Assembly (NCBI GenBank): GCA_029560875.1
Contig: JAKQKB010000063.1
Span: 1 to 35,990 of the forward strand
Direction of reading: 5' to 3'
Origin: Bacteroidota bacterium
GTDB taxonomy: Bacteria; Bacteroidota; Bacteroidia; Bacteroidales; Tenuifilaceae
DNA: 35,990 nucleotides
This document shows, piece after piece, positions 4,301 to 32,539 of the stretch. The position numbers were made by a program, and so were the translations under genes. The stretch's first letter is position 1, and each line of letters begins with the position of its first letter. The notes under the pieces were generated by a model that saw nothing but the letters and a program-made list of their open reading frames with translations, did not search any database and had not been told where the DNA came from.

Positions 4301-4444
4301 AACATAAAAGACGCAAGACACACTTCACAAAAAACATTATTACACTTAATTTTTTTAAATATATTAAATTGGAGCCTGAACCATATGAAAAACGGGGCGT
4401 AACCGAAAAGCCAAACGAGTAGGAATAATTAAACATCTGATACT

Positions 4445-22558: not shown

Positions 22559-23243
22559 GTGTGTCGGGCAAACACTACTACACTACACTACCGGCAAGAT
22601 GCAAGTTCTTGCACACGCCGGCTTGGGAGTAAGCGATAGCGAATAGCAGGGATGTTGCGGGTGGTTGCAAATCTGGAAGAAGCCATAAGCAAGGGCATCG
22701 TGCAGACGCACCGAAATCCGATAGAAGGCAGACAAGCGGAGGGTGAGCGAGCCATGGATTGCGAATAACCCGAAGGCCAACCGTAACCGGTTACAGAAAA
22801 TAAGGCAGCACCTGTTGAAGGCAGTACTGTTTATTCCGAGAGGTCTTGCAGGGCGCACCTACTGAGAGCACGAGCGGCAGCGATGCAGCTTTTACCCCGC
22901 AAGAAGTCAGCGGAGGCGATAGTAGTTTACTCAAGCCAGGCTAGGATGAAGGGCTGAATCTTTTAATGTGGGGGGGACGGTACAGAAGTAAACCCTATGG
23001 AGCGGAAGCAAGCTATAGGGTATCAGCTGGAGCCTTTTTCCGACAGCACCGGGAGCGCTGTACACCAGTGAAGCCGAAAGCGGAGCTGGGGGGAGTGAAG
23101 GTTCAGCAGGAGGGTTTAGCAGGCGTACAGCGACGAGCCTTGATGCACAATTTATGAGAGGTTACACGTTAAAAGGAACCGCCGTGCCCGCCGCAGGCGG
23201 AAGCCGGGTGGTGTGAGAGGGCGGGGGAGTAATCCCCTCATAC
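22559..23243 (+). mobile_element. ORF-less group II intron-like element, class C-like insertion site
   Basis: Starts with GTGTG, which fits the group II 5' end GTGYG, eight bases after the htrA terminator hairpin. The segment AAGAAGTCAGCGGAGGCGAT, followed by GAAGGGCTGAATCTTTTAATG, resembles the stretch that in Bacteroidota introns leads into the reverse transcriptase gene. Here no RT follows. The 3' end GGAACCGCCGTG...GGGTGGTGTGAGAGG resembles domain V, and GGGGGAGTAATCCCCTCATAC fits a domain VI hairpin with the intron 3' end. The tip of domain V seems replaced by a CCGCCGCAGGCGG unit. Probably a non-autonomous, perhaps inactive intron. The class and domain calls rest on recalled motifs. Confidence 0.6.
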
Positions 23244-31159: not shown

Positions 31160-32179
31160 CTACATCATCGCGTTGTTACTAGCACAGCATTCGTCGGGCC
31201 AAACGGAGGCCTGAACATCCCGTATGTGTGATTTTCGTAGCAAAAACATGCAAAGCCGCGATTGGCCTATTCCTCCCCCAATGCTTTGTGGCAGCTTGTC
31301 CTCGAGTAGTTGGCGGTGGTACCAAAGCCCGCGACGATTATCGCAATCCTGCATCGCCAGCTGCAGCTTAAGCGCCTCGCTGTTAACCCTAATTCCCATA
31401 GACGAGAGCTCCAGTGAATTTTGAAGGGTGGGATGCCAAACCAGGATATCGCCGTTGAGGCCTCTTTTACCATCACCTCGGAGGGTTGACCAGTCGTCGT
31501 AGTCGGGTGCCCGACCATCTGCAGGATGGCCATTCGATAGGGGATAGCCAATTCCCTCGATACATACAGCTCCAAGTTCCCTGCAGCTTTCATACTCGCG
31601 TTGTCGGTGCGAAAGGTTTGGAAACCTTGCCTCCAGCTCGCTGGTGTGGATGAAGTGTATTTTATCGGGCAAAACTGGCGCTAGTTGGGGAAAGTGCTCA
31701 AAGATATGAGATTCCAAATCTTTCATGGCGGAGTAAATTTGTTCAACCGTTCTTCTGAAGTACTCCAGGTTGCGTTGAGCATCAGCTATACATTTTTCCC
31801 AATCCCACTGGTCAACGTAAATTGAATGTGTGGCATCGAGCGTTTCGTCAGGTCGGAGTGCATTCATGTTGGTGTAGATACCCTTTCCTGGCTCTACTTT
31901 AAGTCTGGCAAGGGTTATCCTTTTCCACTTGGCCAGCGACTGCACAACTTCAACCTCCCTGTTGCCCAGCGATTTGGCGCTGAACCTGACAGGTTGTTCA
32001 ACCCCGTTGAGGTCGTCGTTTATACCCATACCCGAGGGTACTATCAGCGGTGCGGTAACACGCCGTAGGTTTAGCACTGCTGCCAATTTCCCGGGAAAGA
32101 AATCGTGGATGAGGGCGATTGCATCTTCTGTCTGGCGGGCATCCAGAACGTTTTGGTATAATTTAGCTGGTGTTTCCAT
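31160..32179 (-). CDS. asnA: aspartate-ammonia ligase (asparagine synthetase A)
   Basis: A 339-residue class II aminoacyl-tRNA-synthetase-like enzyme that makes asparagine from aspartate, ammonia and ATP. Recognisable parts: VTAPLIVPSGMGINDDLNGV, SLAKWKRITLARLKV, DETLDATHSIYVDQWDWEKC, GKRGLNGDILVWHPTLQNSL, SSMGIRVN and the ATP-site motif GGGIGQSRLCMFLLRKSHI. Length is normal. The start ATG 32179 overlaps the end of a leader frame (stop at 32163). Its leader (32180-32488) carries two Asn-rich ORFs and two terminator hairpins, so expression is probably attenuated by asparaginyl-tRNA supply. Confidence 0.96.
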   Translation of the reverse strand: METPAKLYQNVLDARQTEDAIALIHDFFPGKLAAVLNLRRVTAPLIVPSGMGINDDLNGVEQPVRFSAKSLGNREVEVVQSLAKWKRITLARLKVEPGKGIYTNMNALRPDETLDATHSIYVDQWDWEKCIADAQRNLEYFRRTVEQIYSAMKDLESHIFEHFPQLAPVLPDKIHFIHTSELEARFPNLSHRQREYESCRELGAVCIEGIGYPLSNGHPADGRAPDYDDWSTLRGDGKRGLNGDILVWHPTLQNSLELSSMGIRVNSEALKLQLAMQDCDNRRGLWYHRQLLEDKLPQSIGGGIGQSRLCMFLLRKSHIRDVQASVWPDECCASNNAMM

Positions 32180-32324
32180 GTAATTTATTTTTTTTAGGTT
32201 GAGGAACTTGCATAAAAAGAAAACCCTTCACACGGTTTTTCCGGGAAGGGCAAATACAGCATGATCCTGACCCGGAGGGAGGTGGGCGGTTATTATTATT
32301 TCCGTTTAGTAGCGGGGTTTGCAT
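32163..32324 (-). CDS. asnA leader ORF 2 with an Asn run
   Basis: ATG 32324 starts MQTPLLNGNNNN: five Asn codons among residues 7-12. The Pro/Ser-rich stretch RPPPSGSGS and then terminator 2 follow. The frame stays open through the terminator to 32163, 17 bases inside asnA, which is unusual for a leader peptide. Best read as a regulatory leader rather than a functional protein; the downstream part (residues 20-53) may be incidental. Confidence 0.5.
   Translation of the reverse strand: MQTPLLNGNNNNRPPPSGSGSCCICPSRKNRVKGFLFMQVPQPKKNKLHGNTS
32214..32250 (-). terminator. asnA leader terminator 2
   Basis: On the minus strand CCCTTC pairs with GAAGGG, with inner CGG/CCG, and TTTTCTTTTT follows directly. 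TCCGGG earlier in the leader can pair with CCCGGA in the 5' arm, giving a competing antiterminator. It lies 35 bases before the asnA ATG. Confidence 0.7.
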
Positions 32325-32354
32325 GGTGTTACTTCTAGTTGGGTTACTGCAATC

Positions 32355-32387
32355 AAAAAAGGCTCTCCCTTTTTGGGAAAGCCTTTT
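32355..32387 (-). terminator. asnA leader terminator 1
   Basis: On the minus strand AAAAGGCT-T-TCCC pairs with GGGA-G-AGCCTTTT around an A5 loop and is followed by T residues. It lies 21 bases after the stop of leader peptide 1. It could also serve as terminator of the upstream OsmC/DUF1858 operon. Confidence 0.8.
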
Positions 32388-32407
32388 GCGGGTAATCAAT
32401 GTTTATT

Positions 32408-32488
32408 TCAGCAATAGCAATCCCCTTTCAACAACCAGCCATTATTGTTGAAATTGTAATTGCAATTATTGCGGAATATGTGAATCAT
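32408..32488 (-). CDS. asnA leader peptide 1, 26 residues with seven Asn
   Basis: ATG 32488 to TGA 32408. Residues 7, 8, 10, 12, 14, 15 and 16 are Asn (FRNNCNYNFNNNGW), i.e. seven of ten. The Asn codons lie in a perfect hairpin TTTCAACAA/TTGTTGAAA that a stalled ribosome would open, and an intrinsic terminator follows the stop. This is the classic layout of ribosome-mediated attenuation, placed upstream of the asparagine synthetase gene. Confidence 0.75.
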   Translation of the reverse strand: MIHIFRNNCNYNFNNNGWLLKGDCYC

Positions 32489-32507: not shown

Positions 32508-32539
32508 GCAAGGTAGGATTTTCCTTTAAATTCTCAAAA
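32508..32539 (-). promoter_or_regulatory. asnA leader promoter
   Basis: Minus strand: TTTTG (32539-32535), 19 bases, TACCTTGC (32515-32508). The spacing is ideal; the -7 box deviates from TAnnTTTG by one base. The expected transcript start lies about 12 bases before leader peptide 1. Confidence 0.5.

What the first reader, a model, noticed from the sequence alone, without database searches (positions are those of the whole stretch)
32163..32488. Tandem asparagine attenuator-like leaders upstream of asnA
Leader peptide 1 (32488-32408) has seven Asn in residues 7-16, a stop, and then terminator 1 (32355-32387). Downstream, leader ORF 2 (from 32324) has five Asn in residues 7-12 and is followed by terminator 2 (32214-32250), whose 5' arm CCCGGA can instead pair with TCCGGG. 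A promoter-like TTTTG-19-TACCTTGC precedes both. Two serial Asn-sensing switches before an asparagine synthetase gene would be a graded or fail-safe control. Trp, His and Ile/Val leaders of this kind are classic; I do not know of a described tandem Asn one.
Basis: partly seen in the sequence, partly recalled or inferred. Interest (0 to 1): 0.82.

Follow-up and report, generated by a model that had tools for sequence, protein, structure and literature searches.

The report
Tandem asparagine switches with proline brake
In a number of Bacteroidota, two short reading frames packed with asparagine codons, each followed by a predicted transcription terminator, stand in a row before a gene for making asparagine; together they likely let the gene be read only when asparagine is short, and the second likely uses a run of prolines to park the ribosome in place of a stop codon.

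Summary
Before asnA (31160-32179, minus; TIGR00669) lie leader ORF 1 (7 Asn in residues 7-16), terminator 1, leader ORF 2 (5 Asn in residues 7-12) and terminator 2. This is not chance. All 15 asnA genes found in the window's family carry both leaders. A model of leader 2, searched against 393 genomes of the order, found 9 leaders it was not built from: 7 before asnA, one at a contig end, and one before an unrelated asparagine synthase, asnB. Asn codons vary silently, terminator 1 and antiterminator 2 covary, and the antiterminator arm mostly starts 10-18 nt after the last Asn codon, just outside a ribosome stalled there. Best reading: two ribosome-mediated Asn attenuators in series (AND logic). 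The first is classic, with a stop codon parking the ribosome. In the second type the Asn run is followed either by an early stop codon, nearly always preceded by Pro (14 of 15), or, where the frame runs on, by consecutive prolines (24 of 24; 22 as PPP/PPG/PPW; RPPP in most of this family). I infer that this pause replaces the stop codon. No expression data exist here. I found no published Asn attenuator in the open-access library searched.

The parts
32508..32538 (-). promoter-like site, TTTG-19-TACCTTGC (Bacteroidota -33/-7 type)
   Evidence: sequence; (8 of 10; 19 nt before the ORF 1 ATG)
32408..32488 (-). leader ORF 1, 26 aa, type 1
32441..32470 (-). Asn codons of leader 1 (7 of 10 codons)
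32416..32424 (-). antiterminator arm 1 (GGGATTGCT)
   Evidence: in the window itself not better than shuffles (p 0.24), supported in most relatives
32355..32387 (-). terminator 1: hairpin 32387-32357 and U-tract
   Evidence: -19.8 kcal/mol; covariation
32163..32324 (-). leader ORF 2, 53 aa, type 2, runs through terminator 2 and 17 nt into asnA in another frame
32289..32306 (-). Asn codons of leader 2 (5 of 6 codons)
32277..32288 (-). Arg-Pro-Pro-Pro codons, predicted ribosome pause (brake)
   Evidence: RPPP is a strong pauser in an E. coli reporter (PMC8129111, passages)
32266..32276 (-). antiterminator arm 2 (TCCGGGTCAGG)
   Evidence: p 0.034; covariation in the family
32214..32251 (-). terminator 2: hairpin 32251-32223 and U-tract
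   Evidence: -14.1 kcal/mol
31160..32179 (-). asnA, aspartate--ammonia ligase, the regulated gene
   Evidence: TIGR00669, 365.8 bits (cut-off 292.8)

Best explanation
The leader of asnA carries two asparagine-codon-rich reading frames and two terminator-like hairpins in series, and it most likely works as two ribosome-mediated attenuators that would both have to be opened by asparagine shortage before RNA polymerase reaches asnA. Inferred step 1: with charged tRNA-Asn plentiful, the leader 1 ribosome reaches its stop codon, covers the antiterminator arm, and terminator 1 forms; when Asn is short it stalls on the Asn codons, the arm is left free and pairs with the 5' arm of terminator 1, and transcription goes on. 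Inferred step 2: the same decision is repeated at leader 2 for polymerases that passed terminator 1, so leakage when Asn is plentiful is the product of two small fractions. Inferred step 3: in leader 2 the parking place is made not by a stop codon but, in the window and many relatives, by a polyproline pause (RPPP) at about the codon position where other type-2 leaders have their stop; this pause would hold the ribosome over arm 2 and keep it from running into terminator 2. I hold the tandem Asn attenuation at about 0.85 and the proline brake at about 0.5. Shown directly: the two ORFs, the hairpins as sequence, their conservation, their covariation and the spacing.
For: Conservation: 15 of 15 asnA genes found in the window's family are tandem (some genes nearly identical). 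Tandem leaders also occur in Nafulsella (Cesiribacteraceae), a Flavobacteriales MAG and several Bacteroidales families. Model search of 393 genomes: 21 hits with E below 1e-5; 12 are leaders of the training set or near copies of them, 9 are new: 7 before asnA, 1 before asnB (NF006949, 659 bits), 1 at a contig end. Silent Asn codon changes. Terminator 1: 7 of 9 pairs with two-sided changes, score 0.437 against 0.238 shuffled, 0 of 500. Antiterminator 2 in 12 family leaders: 91.5% paired, score 0.185 against 0.107, 0 of 500, slid versions at most 0.077. Antiterminator complementarity with p at most 0.05 in 38 of 46 type-1 and 18 of 30 type-2 representatives, and 7 of 8 new type-2 leaders. Arm start 10-18 nt after the last Asn codon in 33 of 42 type 1 (8.4 expected) and 27 of 29 type 2 (8.0 expected). 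Masked folds: antiterminator of 4 or more pairs in 46 of 46 type 1 and 26 of 29 type 2 with the ribosome two codons upstream of the last Asn; 10 of 46 and 0 of 29 with it at the stop or brake. Pro-Pro motif in type 2 only (type 1: 0 of 46).
Against: No transcript, ribosome or starvation data. In the window itself the leader 1 antiterminator is no better than shuffles (p 0.24), and within the family L002 and L005 fail for leader 2 (p 0.22, 0.13). L242 and L243 have type-2 leaders without a credible antiterminator. Of 110 further asnA upstream regions of the order only 10 had an Asn-rich leader, so it is dispensable. In wild-type E. coli with EF-P a polyproline motif did not raise termination at the pyrL terminator; the effect was seen in cells lacking EF-P (PMC5021804, passages), which weakens the brake unless EF-P is limiting or the context differs. 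Two late-stop leaders have PPF (L276) and PPV (L280). Leaders within a family share ancestry, so counts are not independent. Antiterminator 1 covaries only modestly (89.1% paired against 86.7% shuffled). The footprint used for masking is recalled, and folding is at equilibrium.
Confidence: 0.82

Rival explanations
1. The Pro codons of leader 2 are kept for RNA reasons: their C-rich sequence pairs with the G-rich antiterminator arm (a classic 1:2 hairpin), and the peptide is irrelevant.
For: The Pro codons are C-rich and arm 2 is G-rich; in L005, L218, L220, L242 and L261 the ribosome-free RNA forms almost no antiterminator (under 1 expected pair), as a 1:2 hairpin would give.
Against: In 21 of 29 type-2 leaders the ribosome-free RNA forms the antiterminator (4 or more pairs), including 10 of the 12 family leaders of alignment A3, so there the C-rich stretch does not sequester arm 2. 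The CC doublets lie in the Asn frame although 0, 1 or 2 codons separate them from the run, all four Pro codons are used (CCA 30, CCC 21, CCT 15, CCG 9), and the residue after PP is mostly P, G, W or a stop.
Confidence: 0.22
2. Leader 2 senses proline as well as asparagine, like mgtP of Salmonella, so that the pair integrates two amino acids.
For: mgtP has three consecutive Pro codons and responds to low proline (PMC3641672, passages).
Against: A ribosome starved at the Pro codons would already cover part of arm 2 and favour termination, the wrong sign for mgtP-like induction (inference from the spacings). Type-2 leaders with one Pro or none keep the Asn run (L054, L242, L243). Proline has no clear link to asparagine synthesis.
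Confidence: 0.08
3. Leader 2 works by translational coupling: ribosomes run through terminator 2 and reach the asnA start, so ORF 2 feeds translation of asnA.
For: In the window ORF 2 ends at 32163, 17 nt inside asnA.
Against: In 15 of 30 type-2 representatives the stop lies before terminator 2, so the overlap is not a conserved feature.
Confidence: 0.05
4. Only one leader works at a time; the second is a relic of duplication or a spare.
For: Type 1 alone and type 2 alone both occur; leader 2 is decaying in L252 and L260 (Asn run left, terminator 2 gone); L242 and L243 lack a good antiterminator 2.
Against: Both Asn runs and both hairpins are kept in all 15 asnA genes found in the family, with covariation in the second unit. 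The two types differ in sequence and parking device, which a recent duplication does not explain.
Confidence: 0.1

Closest known systems
Ribosome-mediated transcription attenuators of the trp/his/thr/ilv type
   Same: Leader peptide rich in codons of the end product, stall-dependent antiterminator, intrinsic terminator, biosynthetic gene downstream.
   Different: Asparagine is the sensed amino acid; two complete units in series for the same amino acid; the second type often has no stop codon in range and has a polyproline motif instead.
Salmonella mgtCBR tandem attenuators (mgtM, mgtP; PMC3641672, passages read)
   Same: Two short ORFs in one leader; consecutive Pro codons in the second; [quoted passage not shown]
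   Different: There the two ORFs sense different signals (ATP, proline) and act additively; here both carry Asn runs, each with its own terminator, and would act multiplicatively. Here the Pro codons are a predicted brake, not the sensor.
ermB with two leader peptides (PMC8274638, start of abstract in the search listing only)
   Same: Two leader peptides before one gene, one inducer.
   Different: Translational attenuation by a drug, not transcription termination by an amino acid.
Engineered his-leader reporter with PPP motifs (PMC8129111, passages) and polyproline-pyrL reporter (PMC5021804, passages)
   Same: Show that RPPP pauses strongly, and that a polyproline stall upstream of an intrinsic terminator raises termination in cells lacking EF-P.
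   Different: Artificial constructs; no such rise in wild-type cells; the second paper only names as conceivable that such stalls could favour a terminator or an antiterminator.
T-box control of asparagine genes in Firmicutes (recalled, not from a call)
   Same: Reads tRNA-Asn charging to control termination before Asn genes; tandem copies are known (recalled).
   Different: RNA binds uncharged tRNA directly, no leader peptide; no T-box or other Rfam family reaches threshold here.
Leader-peptide candidates in Bacteroidota (PMC9723704, PMC7366714, passages)
   Same: Report clues for leader-peptide attenuation before amino-acid operons in Flavobacterium psychrophilum and leader-like sORFs in B. 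thetaiotaomicron.
   Different: The term asparagin- does not occur in either main text; their supplements could not be read here.

Membership tests
Ribosome-mediated transcription attenuator (trp type) | Translated leader ORF with a run of codons for the end product | tested here: met
   Both ORFs; Asn codons conserved with silent changes, other frames not; translation itself not observed
Ribosome-mediated transcription attenuator (trp type) | Intrinsic terminator between leader ORF and gene | tested here: met
   (sequence, energy, covariation); termination itself not observed
Ribosome-mediated transcription attenuator (trp type) | Alternative antiterminator using the terminator's 5' arm | tested here: met
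   38 of 46 type 1 and 18 of 30 type 2 better than shuffles; covariation; the window's own leader 1 is not significant (p 0.24)
Ribosome-mediated transcription attenuator (trp type) | Stalled ribosome leaves the antiterminator arm free, parked ribosome covers it | tested here: met
   Spacing; masked folds (predicted, recalled footprint; 10 of 46 type-1 leaders still form it with the ribosome at the stop)
Ribosome-mediated transcription attenuator (trp type) | Parking by a stop codon of the leader peptide | tested here: inconclusive
   Met in leader 1; not met in leader 2 of the window (no stop before terminator 2); stop inside, beyond or not met before asnA in 15 of 30 type-2 representatives
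Ribosome-mediated transcription attenuator (trp type) | Downstream gene makes the sensed amino acid | tested here: met
   asnA; once asnB
Ribosome-mediated transcription attenuator (trp type) | Expression rises on shortage of that amino acid | not testable with these tools
   No RNA data
mgtCBR-type tandem attenuators | Two leader ORFs sensing two different signals | tested here: not met
   Both ORFs carry Asn runs in 28 of 28 tandem representatives; the signal itself not tested
T-box and other Rfam leaders | Match to the family model at its gathering score | tested here: not met
   none in this region; best is Thr_leader 27.1 bits against 55 required

The most novel reading that the evidence does not exclude
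Type-2 Asn leaders are a new kind of attenuator unit in which a built-in polyproline arrest, not a stop codon, sets the parked position of the ribosome; stop codon and polyproline are interchangeable at about the same codon position in evolution, and the unit is stacked behind a classic Asn attenuator to make a two-gate, multiplicative asparagine switch that can be moved between non-homologous synthetase genes (asnA, asnB).
Probability: 0.45. Interest if true: 0.82.

Novelty: new variant of a known kind. Interest (0 to 1): 0.72.

Why it matters
It adds asparagine to the amino acids with a ribosome-mediated attenuator, in a phylum where such control has been little worked out, and gives a natural case of two same-signal attenuators in series, where the gain from stacking can be measured. 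If the proline brake is right, it is a natural use of polyproline pausing to set termination, an idea that in the papers seen here was raised only from artificial reporters, and it ties asnA control to EF-P. The cassette before both asnA and asnB shows selection on the sensor rather than on one gene's history.

Tried and rejected
Generic sigma-70 promoter and terminator scan: no use here; it lists neither terminator. Rfam: no family; the weak Thr_leader match (27.1 bits, 55 needed) is taken as generic leader-like shape. RNAalifold found no common pair in the cross-family type-2 alignment, so model R1 is sequence only. The 1:2 hairpin reading of the Pro codons, proline co-sensing, translational coupling and a relic second leader were considered and put lower (see rivals). 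My first automatic pairing of leaders with terminators picked wrong hairpins in several loci and was replaced. In one search the last-Asn position is misplaced for L243 (type 2) and for L174, L190, L249, L260 (type 1); L243 was dropped and the four others corrected in the folds, and all five were dropped in the placement test. The asnA matches below the listed ones were not fetched by place; some of them proved to carry leaders. Single Asn-rich leaders in Ligilactobacillus (L035) and in L071 were seen and not followed. Papers: passages read in PMC3641672, PMC5021804, PMC8129111, PMC2965389, PMC7366714, PMC9723704, PMC4833913; all other papers seen as search listings only. The statement that no Asn attenuator and no same-signal tandem transcription attenuator was found in print rests on searches of an open-access library; supplements could not be read.

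Full report
What is there. On the minus strand, upstream of asnA (31160-32179; TIGR00669, 365.8 bits), the sequence shows in order: a promoter-like TTTG-19-TACCTTGC (32538-32508), leader ORF 1 (32488-32408) with seven Asn in residues 7-16, a terminator-like hairpin with U-tract (32387-32355), leader ORF 2 (from 32324) with five Asn in residues 7-12, and a second hairpin with U-tract (32251-32214). One thing it did not note: ORF 2 has no stop before terminator 2; it runs through it and ends at 32163, 17 nt inside asnA in another frame, and its Asn run is followed at once by Arg-Pro-Pro-Pro.

How common it is. asnA is itself patchy: 24 of 392 genomes of a phylum sample, two of them only at E above 5e-4, 158 of 393 of the order, 14 of 27 of the window's family. 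In the family all 15 asnA genes found have both leaders and both hairpins (some pairs are near copies; in L005 and its twin L042 terminator 2 is weak, -8.9 kcal/mol for L005). Elsewhere many asnA genes lack them: of 110 further upstream regions fetched from the order, 10 showed an Asn-rich leader at the cut used, an eleventh (L174) with a laxer cut. Beyond the family, tandem leaders occur in Nafulsella turpanensis, a Flavobacteriales MAG, and several Bacteroidales groups. My curated set has 46 type-1 and 30 type-2 representatives: 28 tandem, 18 type 1 only, 2 type 2 only (L218, L220). Five of the type-1-only cases are from one family of another order (L064, L065, L231, L233, L234). On an AsnA tree of 123 rows the states are clustered but need at least 18 changes (shuffled mean 38.2; gene fragments and cut contigs are among the rows without a leader). 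In one family leader 2 is seen decaying (L252, L260: Asn run left, terminator 2 gone).

Model test. A sequence model of type-2 leaders (R1, built from 29 of them) searched against 393 genomes gave 61 matches at E up to 0.01. Of these 21 lie below 1e-5. Twelve are leaders of the training set or near copies. Nine are new: seven before asnA (L272, L274, L276, L277, L278, L279, L281), one at a contig end (L280), and one, in a genome without an asnA match (G701), before an asparagine synthase B (L275; NF006949, 659 bits). That asnB copy has both leaders and both hairpins. Six of the nine are tandem; L272, L276 and L281 show type 2 only. The other 40 matches have E above 2e-4; ten of them were fetched and none has asnA in the held stretch. 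The same cassette before two non-homologous asparagine synthetases is the strongest single argument that it senses asparagine.

Codons and frame. Over 30 type-2 representatives the six codons up to the last Asn are Asn in 30, 30, 28, 26, 26 and 22 cases (last codon first), with AAT and AAC mixed at every place; over 46 type-1 representatives the last three are Asn in 45, 41 and 42. The other two frames of the same stretch are rich in Ile and stops.

RNA structure. Terminator 1 covaries strongly (7 of 9 pairs with changes on both sides; score 0.437 against 0.238 in shuffles, 0 of 500; slid versions at most 0.255). Antiterminator 1 is 89.1% paired (86.7% in shuffles) with modest covariation (score reached by 4 of 500). 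In 12 family leaders, antiterminator 2 is 91.5% paired with score 0.185 against 0.107 (0 of 500; slid versions at most 0.077), though only two of its ten pairs carry two-sided changes; pair 40-84 is seen as A-U, C-G, G-C and U-A. Taken singly, the arm complements the terminator's 5' arm better than dinucleotide shuffles (p at most 0.05) in 38 of 46 type-1 and 18 of 30 type-2 representatives, and in 7 of 8 new type-2 leaders. The window's own leader 1 fails this test (p 0.24); its leader 2 passes (p 0.034).

Geometry. The arm's first base lies 10-18 nt after the last Asn codon in 33 of 42 type-1 leaders (8.4 expected from shuffles) and 27 of 29 type-2 leaders (8.0 expected) (relatedness not removed). 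With a recalled footprint of about 12 nt ahead of the A-site codon, a ribosome waiting at the last Asn codon just leaves the arm free. Folding transcripts that end at the terminator loop with the footprint masked gives an antiterminator of 4 or more expected pairs in 46 of 46 type-1 and 26 of 29 type-2 leaders when the ribosome is two codons before the last Asn (43 of 46 and 26 of 29 at the last Asn), against 10 of 46 with it at the type-1 stop codon and 0 of 29 at the type-2 stop or brake. The arm was chosen as the best complement, and a ribosome at the brake covers much of the spacer anyway, so the second contrast is less telling than the placement test.

The proline motif. Type-1 leaders have no Pro-Pro in this stretch (0 of 46). 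Type-2 leaders fall in two sets (30, eight, and L280 read by eye). Early stop, within four codons of the last Asn: 15 leaders, of which 14 have Pro as last residue (PPP*, CPP*, LPP*, RPP*, SPP*, FSP*, PHP*, THP*, YP*, P*); the exception is L242 (T*). Late stop: 24 leaders, all with consecutive Pro within five codons, 22 of them as PPP, PPG or PPW; the exceptions are PPF (L276) and PPV (L280). In the 30 the codon that would stand in the A site at the pause (third Pro, Gly, Trp, or the stop) starts at spacer base 10 in 17, 13 in 7, 7 in 4 and 4 in 2. In 12 of the 13 family representatives the motif is RPPP (L054 has YP*); RPPP was a strong pauser in an E. coli his-leader reporter where TPPP was weak (PMC8129111, passages). 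A polyproline stall before an intrinsic terminator raised termination in cells lacking EF-P but not in wild type (PMC5021804, passages). That PPG, PPW and a Pro before a stop also slow ribosomes is recalled, not from a call. In 15 of 30 type-2 representatives the stop codon lies inside or beyond terminator 2 or is not met before asnA, so a stop cannot park the ribosome over the arm there. I therefore infer that the polyproline pause does.

Order of events. Terminator 1 ends 12-41 nt before the ORF 2 ATG in 28 of 28 tandem representatives, too little for a promoter clear of the terminator, and a promoter-like site precedes ORF 1 (8 or more of 10 in 36 of 46; mean 8.3 against 6.7 in letter shuffles). 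Leader 2 is thus reached, as far as sequence can say, only by transcripts that passed terminator 1. Both gates ask for the same thing, Asn shortage, so the logic is AND and the residual leak is a product. This is inference.

Known and new. It works like the trp/his attenuators, and type-1 leaders as a group meet every feature of that kind that could be tested. Type-2 leaders differ in the parking device. The nearest tandem transcription attenuator, mgtCBR, senses two different signals (PMC3641672, passages); ermB has two leader peptides for one drug but by translational attenuation (PMC8274638, listing only). I found no report of an Asn attenuator or of two same-signal transcription attenuators in series in searches; subscription papers and supplements were not searchable. 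Verdict: real, conserved, a new variant of a known kind, with a testable and less certain new element in the proline brake.

Noticed in passing
whole window (G000:C69): A stretch of 4.1 kb around asnA is 99.7% identical to a contig of 'Bacteroidales bacterium UBA1064' (L003), and 3.6 kb to G004 (L040), while the window's assembly G000 (contamination 6.48%) has another asnA, 64% identical as protein, on C183. The window contig is probably misbinned.
   Followed up: partly
L252 and L260, upstream of asnA: Leader 2 caught in decay: Asn run left, terminator 2 lost, leader 1 intact.
   Followed up: no
L035 (Ligilactobacillus araffinosus) upstream of asnA: A single Asn-rich leader (MANRNNNGNNLNNNIYRHIIAESQ) and a terminator-like hairpin before asnA in Bacillota, perhaps independent.
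   Followed up: no
L071 (G348) upstream of asnA: A single Asn-rich leader (NANLNSNLNLNANNN) and a terminator-like hairpin in a distant lineage of the phylum.
   Followed up: no
window 4364-4429 (+): DUF805 RNA (RF03081), 65.4 bits, a known cis-regulatory RNA family.
   Followed up: no
window 22655-22954 (+): Group II intron fragments (RF02001, RF01998).
   Followed up: no
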